Assembly: GCA_022769085.1 (NCBI GenBank)
Contig: JALEKO010000045.1
Location: forward strand, 1-34,480
From: Peptoniphilaceae bacterium
Lineage (GTDB): Bacteria; Bacillota; Clostridia; Tissierellales; Peptoniphilaceae
Length of the DNA stretch: 34,480 nt
Direction of reading: 5' to 3'
Shown: positions 12,286 to 18,595 of the stretch, in pieces
How positions within the stretch are numbered: position 1 is the stretch's first letter
How the letters are laid out: every line of letters begins with the position of its first letter
Position numbers and translations under genes: made by a program
Notes under the pieces: model-generated
The model's input: the letters and a program-made list of their open reading frames with translations, nothing else
Databases searched by the model: none
Told to the model about the DNA's origin: nothing

Positions 12286-12327
12286 TTTTTCCCAAAAAAT
12301 CATTTCCATATGACTTTTTGGGAAAAA
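12286..12327 (-). terminator. Inverted repeat after the amidohydrolase gene, probable operon end
   Basis: 18-nt arms at 12286-12303 and 12310-12327 with a 6-nt loop. The CCCAAAAA/GGG core has one imperfect position, which is a G-U wobble in minus-strand RNA but a mismatch in plus-strand RNA. This suggests it acts on the minus-strand operon. There is no T-run outside the stem, so termination efficiency is uncertain. Confidence 0.5.
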
Positions 12328-12419: not shown

Positions 12420-13580
12420 TTAGTTATTTTTATTTAAAATTTCCATACCGCCTTGAATTACCTGATATACATATTTAAGAGCATCTATATTATCTAAAGG
12501 ATTTTTATCTAAAACAACAAAATCTGCTTTTTTATTGATATCTATAGATCCTAAATCATCTCTTCTTAATATTTTTGCTGCATTTACTGTAATTCCCTTT
12601 AATACATCTATATTTTCAGCACCTAATTCATGAATATATTTGGCTTCTTTTGACAATCCAGCATGTAATCCATCAGTTCCAATTCCAAAATTTATACCAG
12701 CTTTTATTGCTTTTGAAAGGCATTTTTTTATTTTTTCTTTTTCTTGCATACTTTCTTCATAATTCTTTGGGGAAAATTTTAATAAAATATCATCATTTAA
12801 TCCATAACTAGGTGTAAATACCACCCATGTTTTTGTATCTTTTACTCTTTGAATTTGCTCATCATTAATATAATAAACATGTTCGAGTGTCGTAATACCA
12901 GCATCAATACTTCTATCTAGAGCTATTCCACCAGAAACATGAATAGCTGTAGGAATATTTACACTATTTGCTTCTTCTACAACAGCTTGCATTTCTTTTA
13001 AAGTTAAATAAGCTGGTATATTATCATCTTTATTTATCACACCAGTTGTGAATAATTTAAGGAAATCAGCCCCTCTTCTAATATTTTCTCTGGATTGCTT
13101 TCTAAATTCTTGTTCACCTACAAATGGCATACCAACATAACCATGCCCATGCAAACTTCTCATACCTATACCACATACTGTTAATCTTGGTCCTATTACT
13201 CTTCCTTCATTTTGAGCACTTTTAAATGCAATATCTATATAATACTTATCACCCATACATCTAGAAGCGGTCACCCCTGACTCAAGGTCATCTTTCATTG
13301 TTTTAATTGCTCTAATTGAATGTTCTACCTCTGGATCATTCATCTTTTCTAAATGATTTTCTAATCTTGCATCAAGAGCAAGATGATTATGACAATCTAT
13401 CATTCCTGGCATTATAATTTTTTCATTATAATTTAATACTTCATAGTTTGTATTATCAGAATTGAAATTTTCTATTATATCAATAATTTTATCATTTTCA
13501 ATAACTAGACCAATGTCTTTCTTTAATTCAAGATTTTCACCTACTAAAACATTATTAGATGTAATAATTTTTTTTGTCAT
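12420..13580 (-). CDS. Amidohydrolase-superfamily metal-dependent hydrolase
   Basis: A 386-residue TIM-barrel hydrolase of the imidazolonepropionase/Xaa-Pro-dipeptidase-like branch. Metal and active-site residues are visible in order: His64-x-His66 in IDCHNHLALD, Lys175 in DFLKLFTTG (possible carboxylated bridging lysine), His214 in IHVSGG, His234 in TLEHVYY and Asp303 in GTDGLH. N- and C-terminal strands form the usual beta-sandwich (GSIDINKKADFVVLDKNPL). The family cleaves C-N or C-O bonds in cyclic amides, peptides and lactones; the substrate is unknown. It is last in the acid-sugar operon and overlaps the permease stop (TAATG). It might open a lactone or cleave an acyl or amide conjugate to release the acid sugar, but this is inference. 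Confidence 0.82.
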   Translation of the reverse strand: MTKKIITSNNVLVGENLELKKDIGLVIENDKIIDIIENFNSDNTNYEVLNYNEKIIMPGMIDCHNHLALDARLENHLEKMNDPEVEHSIRAIKTMKDDLESGVTASRCMGDKYYIDIAFKSAQNEGRVIGPRLTVCGIGMRSLHGHGYVGMPFVGEQEFRKQSRENIRRGADFLKLFTTGVINKDDNIPAYLTLKEMQAVVEEANSVNIPTAIHVSGGIALDRSIDAGITTLEHVYYINDEQIQRVKDTKTWVVFTPSYGLNDDILLKFSPKNYEESMQEKEKIKKCLSKAIKAGINFGIGTDGLHAGLSKEAKYIHELGAENIDVLKGITVNAAKILRRDDLGSIDINKKADFVVLDKNPLDNIDALKYVYQVIQGGMEILNKNN

Positions 13581-14572
13581 TATTTTCCTTCCTTTTTAAT
13601 GAAAAATTTAGAATCATCTATTATATTTATTCTTTTATTTGATTTTTTTGCCTTTTTAGCAAAATATCCTGTTAAAATAGGAGTGACAATAGTTGTTATA
13701 ACTACAGAAGCTGCTACTTGTGCAGTTGCAACTGGAACTAAAGATTTTAAAGAAGGATCAGCCATTGCAACCGCTGCAGGAACTGCTATTGCATTCCCTC
13801 CTGTTGTCCCAATGGCCATTCCCATTGGATCTTTTTTTCCTCTAATCATACTATAAATATAGTATGTAAGTATACCAGTAAATACAAATGTAATAATTCC
13901 TAAAGCAATTCCACCTATACCAGCTTCTATAATTTGTTTTAAATTAATATTTGATCCAAATAAAAATCCATTAAACGGTAAAATCATTATCAATCCATTC
14001 TGTAAAATTTTTCTAAATTCTTCATCTAAATTACCTAGTATCATACCAATAAGTAATGGAATCAATGCTGCTATAAATGCAATGACAGGAATTTCCGCAA
14101 TGCCAGTCGTTCCCAATGCAATCATAGTTAAAAAAGGACCATCGTTTAACGATAAAATAGCAATAGCTCCTGGATCAGTTTTATCTCCAAATTCTTGTGC
14201 TAGTGCCGTATACATAGCACCATTTGAATTCGTCACCGCTGTAATAATAGCTAAAGGTCCTAATCCCAAAAATGCTTTATCTCCAAATATAAAAAACAAT
14301 CCCCATCCTATCAAAACACCAATTAAGAACTTTAACAAAGTTAAAAAAACACCTTTAACTAAAGGAACTCCTACTTCTTTAAAATTAATAGATGCTCCGC
14401 TACACAAAATAAATAATCCTACCATAGTTGGAGTCCCTGTTTTGAATAAAGCTGTGGTAAATCCACCTATTTCTAATATATTTGGTATAAAAGTATTGAT
14501 TAATGTACCAATGATTAATGGAATTACCATCATTCCACTTGGAAATTTTTTCATATACTCTACTAATTTCAT
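13580..14572 (-). CDS. 2-keto-3-deoxygluconate permease (KdgT) family transporter
   Basis: A 330-residue integral membrane protein with about ten helices. It matches the KdgT family, proton symporters for acid sugars such as 2-keto-3-deoxygluconate. Recognisable parts are MKKFPSGMMVIPLIIGTLINTF at the N-terminus, the LFKTGTPTMVGLFILCSGASI segment, GPLAIITAVTNSNGAMYTALAQEFGD and SLNDGPFLTMIALGTTG. Paralogues in this family import several acid sugars, so the substrate here is more likely the one consumed by the linked kinase and decarboxylase than 2-keto-3-deoxygluconate itself. No KDG kinase or aldolase is nearby. The gene lies 12 nt after otnC and overlaps the amidohydrolase start. Confidence 0.88.
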   Translation of the reverse strand: MKLVEYMKKFPSGMMVIPLIIGTLINTFIPNILEIGGFTTALFKTGTPTMVGLFILCSGASINFKEVGVPLVKGVFLTLLKFLIGVLIGWGLFFIFGDKAFLGLGPLAIITAVTNSNGAMYTALAQEFGDKTDPGAIAILSLNDGPFLTMIALGTTGIAEIPVIAFIAALIPLLIGMILGNLDEEFRKILQNGLIMILPFNGFLFGSNINLKQIIEAGIGGIALGIITFVFTGILTYYIYSMIRGKKDPMGMAIGTTGGNAIAVPAAVAMADPSLKSLVPVATAQVAASVVITTIVTPILTGYFAKKAKKSNKRINIIDDSKFFIKKEGK

Positions 14573-14584
14573 TAATTTTACCTC

Positions 14585-15160
14585 TTAATTATTGTTAAAA
14601 TGATTTAATAACCACGCATTATAAGATGCTTCTTCTATTTCTTCTAGCATATAAAAAGCTTCCATTAATGTTGGAGCACCTACTATAACACCGTGATTTT
14701 TTAGAATATATGCATTATATCCTTTTGTGCTTTCTTTCTTAAACATATCAAATAGTTCTTTGCTACCAGGTTTTGCGTATTTTACAAAACCTATTTTCCC
14801 AACTTTCATATTTAAATATGGAGTTGGAGTTTCAATCTTAAAATCGTTTTCATTATCATACACACATGACCAAAAAGTAGAAAATGTACTGTGCGTATGT
14901 ATAACTGCTTTTTTATTTTTATCAGAATCATACATGTACTTATGTAATGTTATTTCCTTGCTTGGTTTTACATTATTTATAACTTTATTTCCTTCCACTA
15001 TAGAAAAGCTATTTTCTTTTAAATTTCCAAAGCATGAACCTGTTTTTGTTATATATATTTTTTTATCTTTAATAAAACTTAAATTTGCTGTAGAGCCACT
15101 AACTTTGTTTCTATCAAATAATGATTTTGCAATCCATATAGCTTCATCAATCTTTTTCAT
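14585..15160 (-). CDS. otnC: Class II aldolase-fold decarboxylase, 3-oxo-tetronate 4-phosphate decarboxylase type
   Basis: A 191-residue protein of the class II aldolase/adducin family, related to L-fuculose-1-phosphate aldolase. Zinc-type histidines are visible at His88 and His90 (AVIHTHSTFSTF) and His156 (LKNHGVIVG); a conserved acidic residue sits in PSKEITLHKYMY. OtnC enzymes decarboxylate 3-oxo-tetronate 4-phosphate to dihydroxyacetone phosphate and CO2. Assignment to OtnC rather than a sugar aldolase rests on direct linkage to the OtnK-type kinase: the otnK stop and this ATG are adjacent (TAAATG), and the GGAG ribosome site is inside otnK. The protein is slightly shorter than typical OtnC (about 210). 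Confidence 0.85.
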   Translation of the reverse strand: MKKIDEAIWIAKSLFDRNKVSGSTANLSFIKDKKIYITKTGSCFGNLKENSFSIVEGNKVINNVKPSKEITLHKYMYDSDKNKKAVIHTHSTFSTFWSCVYDNENDFKIETPTPYLNMKVGKIGFVKYAKPGSKELFDMFKKESTKGYNAYILKNHGVIVGAPTLMEAFYMLEEIEEASYNAWLLNHFNNN

Positions 15161-16402
15161 TTAACTCTCCATTATTTCTATAGATCTGTTAAAAAAATCT
15201 TCTTGTCCAAAATTTCCAGATTTTAGTATTATCTGAAATTTGGTATTTTCTAGTGGTCTTAAAACTGGTACTCCAGAATCAACAAGTGCTGTTGATTTAT
15301 AAAATTCAAATGGCAAAGATTTTATGATGGCTCCTGATGTTTCGCCGCCTGCAACAACAATTTTTTTAATATCATTTTCATAAGCAAAAACAGCAATTTC
15401 TGAAAAAAATTCTTCAAGCTTATTTGCATTTATTTTTAATTCTTCAGTACTAATATTTTCATCTCTTGTGCTAAAAAACAATATATTTTCATTAGAATTT
15501 AAAATTATATTTTTAATTTTTTTTATATATTCTTCGTTTATATATTTTGCTTTTACTTCTATTGCATAGCCATTATTATCTATGAAATTCTTTATTTGTT
15601 TTTGTGTTTGATTTGACAAGCTTCCAGAAAATAAAATACTTTTGCCACTATTTTTTTCGTAAATTTCTACTTTTTTATTTTCTTTATTTTTAAATAAATA
15701 TTTATACCAATCTCTAATCAATACCGAACTTCCGCTTAGTATTTTTAAATTTCCAAAACTTTCAATTATATTTTCCCCATGTATATTTTTAAAATAATCA
15801 CTTATAATATAAAACTTATTATCTTTATCTATATTATTAACAAAAAAATTTATTGAATCTTTTCCTTTTTCTATTATTTTATAATTTAAAGAATATGATT
15901 TATATTTTGATTGAGCATCCATAAGTCTTGAAAGTTTAGCATCTTTCATTGGTGTAAGTGGATGGTTTGCCATTGACCCTTCATTTAATAAAACTCCATC
16001 TGCAAATAGATATCCATTAAATACTTCTCTGTTGTTATCGGGTAAAGCTGGTGAGATTATTGAATATTTCTGATTATATCTATCTATTAAATAATCCAAA
16101 ACTGGTCCTATATTTCCTTCTGATGTAGAATCAAATGTTGAACAATATTTATCATATATTTTAGTAACACCAATTTTCTCAAAGAAATCAATAGCATCTT
16201 TTACTTTAGATAGAGCTTTTTCTTTTGAAACAGTTCTAATTTTTAAAGCAATAACTACAACTTCTACTTCAAGTTTTGGAATGTGTTTTGGTATATCATT
16301 TACAAGTACACAACTAGCACCTGATTCTACTAAAAATGAACATACATCTGCAGCTCCTGTAAAATCATCAGCTATACATCCAATTAATTGTTTTTTTTCC
16401 AT
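15161..16402 (-). CDS. otnK: Four-carbon acid sugar kinase (DUF1537), 3-oxo-tetronate kinase type
   Basis: A 413-residue member of the two-domain DUF1537 kinase family, which phosphorylates acid sugars with ATP. The N-terminal substrate domain opens with IGCIADDFTGAADVCSFL (Asp12-Asp13), has KYCSTFDSTSEGNIGPV and the ISPALPDNNREVFNGYLF region. The C-terminal nucleotide domain has ILFSGSLSNQTQKQI and VVAGGETSGAIIKSL near residue 350. Known members phosphorylate 3-oxo-tetronates at C4 for the decarboxylase encoded next door; others act on related acid sugars, so the exact substrate is inferred from context. Length is normal. It begins 8 nt downstream of the oxidoreductase stop. Confidence 0.88.
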   Translation of the reverse strand: MEKKQLIGCIADDFTGAADVCSFLVESGASCVLVNDIPKHIPKLEVEVVVIALKIRTVSKEKALSKVKDAIDFFEKIGVTKIYDKYCSTFDSTSEGNIGPVLDYLIDRYNQKYSIISPALPDNNREVFNGYLFADGVLLNEGSMANHPLTPMKDAKLSRLMDAQSKYKSYSLNYKIIEKGKDSINFFVNNIDKDNKFYIISDYFKNIHGENIIESFGNLKILSGSSVLIRDWYKYLFKNKENKKVEIYEKNSGKSILFSGSLSNQTQKQIKNFIDNNGYAIEVKAKYINEEYIKKIKNIILNSNENILFFSTRDENISTEELKINANKLEEFFSEIAVFAYENDIKKIVVAGGETSGAIIKSLPFEFYKSTALVDSGVPVLRPLENTKFQIILKSGNFGQEDFFNRSIEIMES

Positions 16403-16410
16403 AAATCTCC

Positions 16411-17775
16411 TTAATTAATATTTAATCCTTTAAGATATGCTTTATAAGATGGTTTTTCACTTAGGTCTACATCTTGAATTTTTATATAATCTCCTTTTTT
16501 AATATCATTTTTTAGTTTCATTCCATTAAGTAAATAAAATGGAGCTACATCTCTAGCTTCAGATACTTCTAATAATGCTGGTATAACTCCATCAATTGAA
16601 TGATGATGCCCAGAAACTCTCAATATGTCACCTTTATTAAAATTTTTGTCTGCATAAGCAGCCATAACTGAAACTTGTTTACATTCTTTGTGAGTTCCAA
16701 TTCCTTTAATATCTCCTAAAAGTATACTTATTGGTGTTTCAAGACCCATTATGTGAAAAGGATTATATAAACAAGCATATTTTCCATTTTTACTTACTAT
16801 ATGACCTTTTGATCTCATCATATCCCAAGATTTTTCATTTTGGCACTCTACAATTACAAATACTCCACCAGCAAAACTTGCTTCATCTTTTTCACGCAAT
16901 TGAAAAAATACATCTACAACATTTGTATCTTTTAAAATTCCACCATCTTTTTCTGGTATAAGAACATCCGCAAGTTCAGATGTCTTAATGATAGGATAAT
17001 TTAAATATTTATCAGATGCTTTAAAACCTGTAATGTTTGAGACAAGATTCATCTCACATAAATCAGCAGAAATAATATTAATGTAATCTTTTAGTAGCTT
17101 TTTTCTACCATTTAGTGTTTTAATTCCTTCGTATCTCCAATATTTTAGCATTTCAGGCATATCTTCAAATTTTTCAGATCCATCTGTATATGTTATTTTT
17201 CCATTTTCTCTATCCCATACAAAATCATATTCACTAGATTTACCTATTGCAATTACCTTAAATCCATTTATTTTTGCCCATGAATATAAATCAATCGCAT
17301 TTCTTGGTTGATCTCCATTTACTAAACTGTAAACGGTATTATTATCACTTGCTAATTTATTTAAGTATGGACCGCATACACTATCTGTTTCTTTTGAAAC
17401 CATATATACATTAATATTATTTTTAAGTGCAAATTCTGATGCAGATAATCCCAATTCAACATTTCCAGTGCATTCTATAAAAGAAGTAATTCCACTTTGA
17501 ATAAGAATTTTATAATCAGTTGTGATAACAATATCATCGTCATTCAAATTAGAAATTTCTTCAATGTTATTTAATTCTTTAATTTTTTCATTGGGATATC
17601 CCATTTCTAACAATATATTCCTACAATCTTCTATAGACCTTGAAGAAATTGCTCTTAATTTAATTTTTTCTACATTTTTAATTTGAGATAAAACAGTAAG
17701 TCCATATCCTTTTGTGGCACCAATTATACCAACTTTTACTTCTTTTTTTTCTGTAAAAAAATGTGTATAATCCAT
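16411..17775 (-). CDS. NAD(P)-dependent oxidoreductase with C-terminal SAF domain (COG4091-like)
   Basis: A 454-residue two-domain protein. It starts with a Rossmann dinucleotide-binding segment (KVGIIGATKGYGLTVLSQI, then ISSRS after the second strand). A catalytic-type middle follows (FIECTGNVELGLSASEFAL, YSLVNGDQPRNAIDLY). Near residue 390 it enters a SAF domain (PFYLLNGMKLKNDIKKGDYIKIQDVDL). This is the layout of proteins labelled predicted homoserine dehydrogenase with SAF domain. A role in homoserine metabolism is unlikely here. As the promoter-proximal gene of the acid-sugar operon it probably oxidises the acid sugar to the 3-oxo acid used by the kinase, replacing the beta-hydroxyacid dehydrogenase of known clusters. 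Reaction and substrate are inferred. The ATG follows GGGAG at 5 nt. Confidence 0.78.
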   Translation of the reverse strand: MDYTHFFTEKKEVKVGIIGATKGYGLTVLSQIKNVEKIKLRAISSRSIEDCRNILLEMGYPNEKIKELNNIEEISNLNDDDIVITTDYKILIQSGITSFIECTGNVELGLSASEFALKNNINVYMVSKETDSVCGPYLNKLASDNNTVYSLVNGDQPRNAIDLYSWAKINGFKVIAIGKSSEYDFVWDRENGKITYTDGSEKFEDMPEMLKYWRYEGIKTLNGRKKLLKDYINIISADLCEMNLVSNITGFKASDKYLNYPIIKTSELADVLIPEKDGGILKDTNVVDVFFQLREKDEASFAGGVFVIVECQNEKSWDMMRSKGHIVSKNGKYACLYNPFHIMGLETPISILLGDIKGIGTHKECKQVSVMAAYADKNFNKGDILRVSGHHHSIDGVIPALLEVSEARDVAPFYLLNGMKLKNDIKKGDYIKIQDVDLSEKPSYKAYLKGLNIN

Positions 17776-17807
17776 TATTTCTCCCTCTATTTAATTTATA
17801 AATACCT

Positions 17808-17819
17808 TATGTATACATA
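17808..17819. promoter_or_regulatory. Candidate GntR/FCD operator in the divergent intergenic region
   Basis: TATGTATACATA is a perfect 12-bp palindrome with the GTATAC core common in operators of FCD-type GntR regulators. It lies just downstream of the predicted start of the acid-sugar operon. A TTGTAT / ATACAA pair (17820-17825 and 17835-17840) beside it could add a second site. Confidence 0.6.
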
Positions 17820-17831
17820 TTGTATATTTTT

Positions 17832-17860
17832 ATAATACAACGTTTTCAATTATAAGTCAA
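17832..17860 (-). promoter_or_regulatory. Promoter of the acid-sugar operon (TTGACT-17-TATTAT)
   Basis: On the minus strand, -35 TTGACT at 17860-17855 and -10 TATTAT at 17837-17832 are 17 bp apart. The predicted start near 17825 gives a leader of about 50 nt. The spacer holds TGAAAACGTTGTA, half of which fits a CcpA cre site. Confidence 0.7.
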
Positions 17861-17898
17861 ATATTTTTTATGATATAATAAATAAAAGGAGTTTACAG

Positions 17899-18537
17899 AT
17901 GAAAGAACGAATGAGCATGAAAGATCTAGCATATGAATTCATAAAAAATAAAATAATTAATAATGAATTCAAGTCTGGACAATATCTTGAAGAAAAGATG
18001 TTATGCGAAATGATAGGAGTTAGTCGTACACCTGTTAGAGAAGCAGTTAGCCTTTTAGAAAGCGAAGGATTTGTCACTTCAAAAGCAAATAAAGGAATTT
18101 TTGTTTCTACTTTAGATATGAAAACTTCTAAAGAATTATTCCAAGCAAGAGCTTACATTGAACCAATAATACTTGAACTTGCATGGAAAAATTTAGAAAC
18201 AGATAAATTAGAAAAATTTATTATTGATACTAAAGATTTTATTAAAAATAAAGATTATAAATCGTTGAATGAAATAGATTATGAATTTCATAACTATATA
18301 AATTCATGTTGCAATAATACTGTCTTACTTAATATTTCTTATAGACTTCAAGACCAATTTCAAAGAGTTAGAACTCTAAATTATTATGATGATCAAAGAA
18401 TTGAAGGTGGTGCTTATGAACATTTAGATATAATAAAACTTATAAAACAAAATAAACTAGACGAAGCTAAAGTAGCTATGAAGAATCATGTGTACAGTAC
18501 ACAAACTTATTTTTTTATGAGCTTTTTCAAAGAATAA
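17899..18537 (+). CDS. GntR-family transcriptional regulator, FCD subfamily
   Basis: A 212-residue regulator transcribed divergently from the acid-sugar operon, hence its likely local repressor. Residues about 8-70 form the winged helix-turn-helix with the family signature LCEMIGVSRTPVREAVSLLESEG. The rest is an all-helical FCD effector domain with metal-ligand residues in place: Asp-x3-His in DYEFHNY, His in YEHLDII and His in KNHVYS. Such domains bind carboxylates, often through a divalent metal, which suits an acid-sugar inducer. The ATG at 17899 follows AAAGGAG at 8 nt. A palindrome of FCD-operator type lies in the shared intergenic region. A strong terminator follows the stop. Confidence 0.9.
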   Translation: MKERMSMKDLAYEFIKNKIINNEFKSGQYLEEKMLCEMIGVSRTPVREAVSLLESEGFVTSKANKGIFVSTLDMKTSKELFQARAYIEPIILELAWKNLETDKLEKFIIDTKDFIKNKDYKSLNEIDYEFHNYINSCCNNTVLLNISYRLQDQFQRVRTLNYYDDQRIEGGAYEHLDIIKLIKQNKLDEAKVAMKNHVYSTQTYFFMSFFKE

Positions 18538-18546
18538 AAATCAAAA

Positions 18547-18595
18547 AAAATTGCCATTATATAATTTAAATTTTTAAACTTATAATGGCAATTTT
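18547..18595 (+). terminator. Terminator after the GntR gene
   Basis: 15-nt perfect arms AAAATTGCCATTATA and TATAATGGCAATTTT with a 19-nt loop, followed by T-rich sequence on the plus strand, 9 nt past the stop. Confidence 0.85.

What the first reader, a model, noticed from the sequence alone, without database searches (positions are those of the whole stretch)
12420..13580. Amidohydrolase with complete metal site placed in an acid-sugar operon
All expected metal ligands (HxH, Lys, two His, Asp) are visible, so the enzyme should be active. I do not recall a described OtnK/OtnC pathway that contains an amidohydrolase-superfamily enzyme. It could open a lactone, or cleave an amide or peptide-like conjugate of the acid sugar. 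This would define the true nutrient of the operon.
Basis: partly seen in the sequence, partly recalled or inferred. Interest (0 to 1): 0.65.

Follow-up and report, generated by a model that had tools for sequence, protein, structure and literature searches.

The report
Amide-cleaving enzyme in acid-sugar operon
A metal-dependent hydrolase is co-inherited with a sugar-acid importer inside a bacterial operon that appears to burn four-carbon acid sugars, so it probably splits an imported, still unidentified acid-sugar derivative before the pathway can use it; no such pathway was found described.

Summary
Window 12420-13580 (-) encodes a 386-aa amidohydrolase-superfamily protein (Pfam Amidohydro_1, 104 bits) with H64, H66, K175, H214, H234 and D303, invariant in all 25 relatives aligned. 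It is the last gene of one operon: DXR-like oxidoreductase (DRL), OtnK-like kinase, OtnC-like decarboxylase, KdgT-family permease, amidohydrolase (1-bp overlap with kdgT), with a divergent GntR gene. Orthologues (55-60% identical) sit with kdgT, DRL, otnK and otnC in Lachnospiraceae and Oscillospiraceae; 11 of 33 DRL genomes encode the enzyme, against 1 of 297 other genomes of a family sample. kdgT occurs in DRL loci only together with it (8 of 8). Other DRL loci carry GntP plus a zinc dehydrogenase instead. It forms a fully supported clade separate from dipeptidases, carboxypeptidases and HutI, and lacks the second His of HxHG that ochratoxinase is modelled to use for the substrate carboxylate. 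LtnD and OtnI were not found in the assembly, so DRL probably makes 3-oxo-tetronate alone. Best reading: the enzyme hydrolyses a KdgT-imported sugar-acid derivative, most likely an amide, feeding DRL-OtnK-OtnC. A new variant of known kinds.

The parts
12420..13580 (-). Amidohydrolase-superfamily (cog1228-like) hydrolase, 386 aa; inferred metal ligands H64, H66, K175, H214, H234, D303
13580..14572 (-). KdgT-family permease, 330 aa; its TAA stop overlaps the ATG of the amidohydrolase gene by one base (TAATG)
   Evidence: Pfam KdgT 382.7 bits; NCBIfam kdgT 208 bits, under its cut-off of 453.8; junction sequence
14585..15160 (-). OtnC-like class II aldolase/decarboxylase, 191 aa
   Evidence: Pfam Aldolase_II; [quoted passage not shown]
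15161..16402 (-). OtnK-like four-carbon acid sugar kinase (DUF1537 family), 413 aa
   Evidence: best NCBIfam family is 3-oxo-tetronate kinase, 341.5 bits against a cut-off of 350; the orthologue in L076 passes with 446.8
16411..17775 (-).
   Evidence: Pfam DRL_cat; PDB 3upl/3upy E 2e-26; DXR-II residues Thr229 and Lys193 replaced by Asp and Ser
17899..18537 (+). divergent GntR/FCD-family regulator, probably the local regulator
   Evidence: position only for the regulatory role
12286..12327 (-). terminator-like hairpin (18 pairs, 4 of them G-C) downstream of the amidohydrolase gene, separating the operon from the mgl-type transporter genes
   Evidence: 3 such sites found in the scanned stretch, mean 1.2 in shuffles

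Best explanation
The protein is a cytosolic binuclear-metal hydrolase that serves as the entry ('funnel') enzyme of an acid-sugar catabolic operon. KdgT imports an anionic acid-sugar derivative. The amidohydrolase cleaves it, most likely at an amide bond (an N-acyl conjugate of a C4-type sugar acid, with ester or lactone opening as second choice), and frees the sugar acid. The DXR-like oxidoreductase then oxidises and isomerises it to a 3-oxo-tetronate in one step, replacing LtnD and OtnI. The OtnK-like kinase phosphorylates C4 and the OtnC-like enzyme decarboxylates the product to dihydroxyacetone phosphate. Shown by sequence and comparative genomics: the operon, the metal site, the conserved KdgT-amidohydrolase-DRL linkage, the separate clade, and no detected LtnD or OtnI in the held (82% complete) assembly. 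Inferred: the direction of flow, the bond cleaved and the role of DRL. Unknown: the substrate.
For: Five same-strand genes with gaps of at most 12 bp and a TAATG kdgT/amidohydrolase overlap, then a terminator-like hairpin. Orthologues at 55-60% identity sit with kdgT and DRL in L076, L079, L099, L101, L103, L116 and L173; with otnK and otnC too except in L099, a 4.3-kb contig that ends before them. Homologues found in 11 of 33 DRL genomes against 1 of 297 others in a family sample (Fisher p 2e-11, phylogeny not corrected). In 41 close DRL loci kdgT occurs only with the amidohydrolase (8 of 8, p 5e-7), and the GntP plus zinc-dehydrogenase module never does (0 of 17, p 0.002). A sister subclade also pairs with KdgT, next to a PrpR-type regulator, and in several of its loci with PdxA/D-threonate-4-P dehydrogenase, glycerate kinase or CdaR genes. 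Clade support 100/100. Metal ligands invariant. OtnI and LtnD-type families not found in the assembly. DRL has lost two residues that anchor the phosphonate inhibitor in DXR-II (Lys193 to Ser, Thr229 to Asp), consistent with a non-phosphorylated substrate upstream of the kinase. Solved relatives named peptidases or prolidases, plus ochratoxinase, and the nearest outgroup genes near dipeptidase-, hydantoin-racemase- or oligopeptide-transporter-like genes (recognised by eye), favour amide cleavage.
Against: Only about a quarter of close DRL loci carry the enzyme. The amidohydrolase superfamily includes lactonases and other reactions, so amide cleavage is a family prior only. The window OtnK, OtnC and KdgT all score below their NCBIfam equivalog cut-offs, so the actual acid could differ from a tetronate. 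One family-sample genome (G797) has the enzyme without a detectable DRL. The assembly is 82% complete, so missing OtnI and LtnD is not proof.
Confidence: 0.55

Rival explanations
1. Sugar-acid lactonase: the enzyme opens a 1,4- or 1,5-lactone of the imported or intracellular sugar acid, so that DRL receives the open-chain acid.
For: Sits in a sugar-acid operon with KdgT, DRL, OtnK and OtnC. Other amidohydrolase-superfamily members open sugar-acid lactones (own knowledge of cog3618 and PLL-type lactonases, not tested here).
Against: Sequence places it in the cog1228 peptidase/amidase branch with a six-ligand binuclear site, not in cog3618. KdgT-type permeases carry anions, whereas a free lactone is neutral (own knowledge).
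Confidence: 0.22
2. Peptidase bystander: a dipeptidase or carboxypeptidase of the ochratoxinase/prolidase kind that merely shares the operon.
For: Nearest solved relatives are named Xaa-Pro dipeptidases, arginine carboxypeptidases and ochratoxin-degrading amidohydrolases. NCBIfam Xaa-Pro dipeptidase is the best family hit.
Against: 185 bits against a cut-off of 500. The second His of HxHG, modelled to bind the substrate carboxylate in ochratoxinase (PMC11342369), is Ser or Ile in all 16 clade members and His in most outgroups. The recurrent pairing with KdgT or Tct transporters in acid-sugar loci is not expected of a bystander.
Confidence: 0.13
3. Cyclic amide (lactam, imide or imidazolone) ring opening, HutI-like, on a sugar-acid-derived heterocycle such as a glycation product.
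For: HutI and cyclic imidases belong to the same superfamily; hutI scores 46.6 bits; near outgroups L007, L033 and L034 lie beside Asp/Glu- or hydantoin-racemase-like genes (recognised by eye).
Against: Far under the HutI cut-off of 298 bits; HutI uses one metal, whereas this protein keeps the full binuclear set including Lys (HutI metal count from own knowledge).
Confidence: 0.1

Closest known systems
cog1228 amidases and peptidases (2QS8 Xaa-Pro dipeptidase, 3BE7/3DUG and 3MTW arginine carboxypeptidases, 8IHQ amidohydrolase, 4C5Y ochratoxinase)
   Same: Same superfamily and metal ligands; conserved Gly-His motif between strand 3 and the catalytic Lys; length and domain layout
   Different: About 30% identity; Ser/Ile instead of the second His of HxHG; shorter loops after the Gly-His motif and after the catalytic Asp than in the solved enzymes; D70, R72, H76 and H144 conserved in its own DRL-linked clade; sits in an acid-sugar operon
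L-threonate/D-erythronate pathway (LtnD/OtnI/OtnK/OtnC; Zhang et al. 2016 as summarised in PMC12540250)
   Same: OtnK-like kinase and Aldolase_II-type OtnC-like decarboxylase
   Different: No LtnD or OtnI found in the assembly; a DXR-like oxidoreductase and an amidohydrolase are present instead; KdgT-family permease
DXR-II / DLO oxidoreductases (PMC3847144; PDB 3UPL)
   Same: Sequence homology over the full length, Lys191 equivalent kept
   Different: Thr229 to Asp and Lys193 to Ser, so not a DXR-II by its defining residues; found in catabolic operons with OtnK and OtnC
D-apiose/apionate pathways (ApnO oxidoisomerase, OiaK; from own knowledge)
   Same: One-enzyme oxidoisomerase followed by a DUF1537-type kinase is the nearest functional analogy
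   Different: OiaK model scores only 80 bits against 700; RuBisCO-like decarboxylase absent from the operon; no amidohydrolase reported there to my knowledge

Membership tests
Amidohydrolase superfamily, binuclear (subtype I) metal site | HxH, (carboxylated) Lys, His, His, Asp | tested here: met
   H64, H66, K175, H214, H234, D303 invariant in 25 sequences; set matches ochratoxinase. Carboxylation itself not testable.
Xaa-Pro dipeptidase (NCBIfam NF051886) | score over the curated cut-off | tested here: not met
   185.2 bits against 500
cog1228 carboxypeptidase/ochratoxinase type | second His of HxHG that contacts the substrate carboxylate (His289 in ochratoxinase, by docking) | tested here: not met
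   Ser216 in the window protein; Ser or Ile in all 16 clade members; HxHG present in the solved enzymes aligned
Imidazolonepropionase HutI (TIGR01224) | score over the curated cut-off | tested here: not met
   46.6 bits against 298
[quoted passage not shown]
   Best family matches, but 341.5 against 350 and 141 against 250 bits; the orthologous kinase in L076 passes with 446.8
OtnK/OtnC tetronate pathway | LtnD/DenD dehydrogenase and OtnI isomerase present | tested here: not met
   No match for NF043033 or PF14833 in the own assembly, while controls ring; assembly 82% complete
DXR-II (DRL) MEP-pathway enzyme | Thr229 and Lys193 (fosmidomycin/substrate anchors) | tested here: not met
   Asp and Ser at these positions (residue roles from PMC3847144)
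KdgT 2-keto-3-deoxygluconate transporter (TIGR00793) | score over the equivalog cut-off | tested here: not met
   208 bits against 453.8; Pfam KdgT family clearly met
Amidohydrolase-superfamily sugar lactonases (cog3618/PLL) | lactone hydrolysis | not testable with these tools

The most novel reading that the evidence does not exclude
A previously undescribed catabolic route in Clostridia for amide-type conjugates of C4 sugar acids: KdgT-family import, cleavage by a new clade of amidohydrolases, one-enzyme oxidoisomerisation by a DXR-like enzyme in place of LtnD and OtnI, then OtnK and OtnC to DHAP.
Probability: 0.4. Interest if true: 0.65.

Novelty: new variant of a known kind. Interest (0 to 1): 0.48.

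Why it matters
It points to a nutrient of gut and other anaerobic Clostridia that is not a free sugar acid, and gives a small genetically linked set (transporter, hydrolase, oxidoreductase, kinase, decarboxylase) from which the nutrient could be found by assay. It also assigns a plausible catabolic role to a branch of the DXR-like oxidoreductases, whose relatives outside the MEP pathway were left uncharacterised in 2013 (PMC3847144), and widens the chemistry of cog1228 amidohydrolases beyond peptides and mycotoxins.

Tried and rejected
Search for the operon in near relatives: none has a DRL at E <= 1e-40 (0 of 248 others in the order) or a close amidohydrolase (best 36% identity), and their distant homologues have other neighbours. 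I read this as horizontal gain of the operon by the window's organism, though operon GC (27.7%) is close to its surroundings (26.7%). Identity as DXR-II, HutI, Xaa-Pro dipeptidase or genuine KDG permease was tested and rejected on curated cut-offs or key residues. Pantoate as the acid was rejected on chemistry (its quaternary C3 cannot become a 3-oxo acid). Two paper hits naming KdgT and an amidohydrolase in C. difficile concern separate genes in expression tables, not a linked pair. The zinc dehydrogenase and GntP of the alternative loci gave no substrate.

Full report
Observation. The ORF at 12420-13580 (minus) encodes 386 aa. It matches Pfam Amidohydro_1 at 104 bits and solved cog1228 enzymes at up to 129 bits. 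Ligands H64-x-H66, K175, H214, H234 and D303 are invariant in 25 homologues from different genomes and correspond to the ochratoxinase set (PMC11342369). The own genome has four other amidohydrolase-family genes elsewhere; this one alone lies in the acid-sugar operon.

Operon. Reading the minus strand, the genes are DRL oxidoreductase 17775-16411, OtnK-like kinase 16402-15161, OtnC-like 15160-14585, KdgT 14572-13580 and amidohydrolase 13580-12420, with gaps of 8, 0 and 12 bp and a one-base overlap (TAATG) before the last gene. A terminator-like hairpin follows at 12327-12286, so the mgl-type transporter genes beyond form a separate unit. A GntR/FCD regulator is divergent. The kinase is best matched by 3-oxo-tetronate kinase (341.5 bits, cut-off 350), and its orthologue in L076 passes the cut-off (446.8). 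DRL is homologous to Brucella DXR-II (PDB 3upl) but has Asp and Ser where DXR-II has Thr229 and Lys193, which with Lys191 anchor fosmidomycin. OtnI and LtnD-type dehydrogenase families are not detected in the assembly. I infer that DRL converts a non-phosphorylated sugar acid to the 3-oxo acid for the kinase, standing in for LtnD plus OtnI. This step is inference.

Linkage. One scan of 85,000 species genomes with a DRL alignment returned 80 loci. In 41 of them, all at least 51% identical in DRL, ten carry the amidohydrolase (for L080 it lies just past the locus end and was found on the same contig, L173). Seven are intact, 55-60% identical to the window protein and adjacent to or in one locus with kdgT: L076, L079, L099, L101, L103, L116 and L173. 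In L099 the 4.3-kb contig shows only kdgT, amidohydrolase and DRL. One (L095) is broken by stops or frameshifts, and two (L087, L096) are 36-38% identical and sit with TctABC transporters instead. KdgT is never present in these loci without the amidohydrolase (8 against 0). The alternative GntP plus zinc-dehydrogenase module occurs in 17 loci, never with it (p 0.002; rows are related and some contigs are short, so p values are indicative). Among whole genomes, 11 of 33 with DRL have a match against 1 of 297 others in a family sample. The amidohydrolase and its transporter thus look like an exchangeable entry module.

Phylogeny. A 61-row tree puts the window protein at the base of the eight DRL/KdgT-linked proteins (100/99), inside a 16-row clade (100/100) that also holds KdgT- or Tct-linked paralogues. 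The KdgT-linked paralogues lie near PrpR-type regulators and, in several loci, near PdxA/D-threonate-4-P dehydrogenase, glycerate kinase, CdaR and Tct genes. The sister rows keep the second His of HxHG and lie near genes that look like dipeptidase, hydantoin or Asp/Glu racemase and oligopeptide transporters (recognised by eye only). The clade has replaced that His by Ser or Ile and fixed D70, H76 and H144, with R72 in 12 of 16. Because His289 of ochratoxinase is modelled to contact the substrate carboxylate, the carboxylate recognition of known peptidases is probably altered here.

Interpretation. The simplest account is an imported sugar-acid derivative hydrolysed on entry. Amide cleavage is favoured because the characterised solved relatives are amidases or peptidases, an ester or lactone is second, and a plain dipeptidase is unlikely. 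The substrate stays unknown. The paper library gave no described OtnK/OtnC pathway with such an enzyme; this covers open-licence papers only.

Verdict. A new variant of known kinds, of moderate interest.

Noticed in passing
L072 (Klebsiella pneumoniae plasmid pRHB39-C10_3), 4820-10362: A DRL, otnK, aldolase, DeoR and gluconate-symporter gene cluster sits between IS elements on a conjugative IncF plasmid from cattle faeces.
   Followed up: no
L075 (Paracoccus ferrooxidans plasmid pFER3), 6992-13829: In a DRL/acid-sugar-kinase/aldolase operon with TRAP transporter genes, a 'cyclase family protein' is encoded between them, possibly another hydrolase in an equivalent role.
   Followed up: no
L095, 11514-13274: In [Clostridium] clostridioforme AGR2157 both the amidohydrolase and kdgT are split by stops or frameshifts while DRL, otnK and otnC are open: gene decay or assembly error.
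   Followed up: partly
L183, about 17300-18562: In genome G797 the amidohydrolase lacks its first 67 residues and is preceded by unrelated sequence, as if interrupted by an insertion; no DRL was found in that genome.
   Followed up: partly
L107, 4891-7302, and 16 other DRL loci: A GntP permease plus an unassigned zinc-dependent dehydrogenase lie beside DRL and seem to be the alternative entry module to KdgT plus amidohydrolase.
   Followed up: partly
L080 / L173, 7688-13521: Mediterraneibacter massiliensis has a second sugar-type cluster (FGGY kinase, class I aldolase, a hydroxyacid-dehydrogenase-like gene, GntP-like) between otnC and kdgT.
   Followed up: no
literature, PMC3847144: Finegoldia magna and Anaerococcus prevotii carry DXR-II but no other MEP or MVA pathway genes, so even 'true' DXR-II may have another role there.
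   Followed up: no
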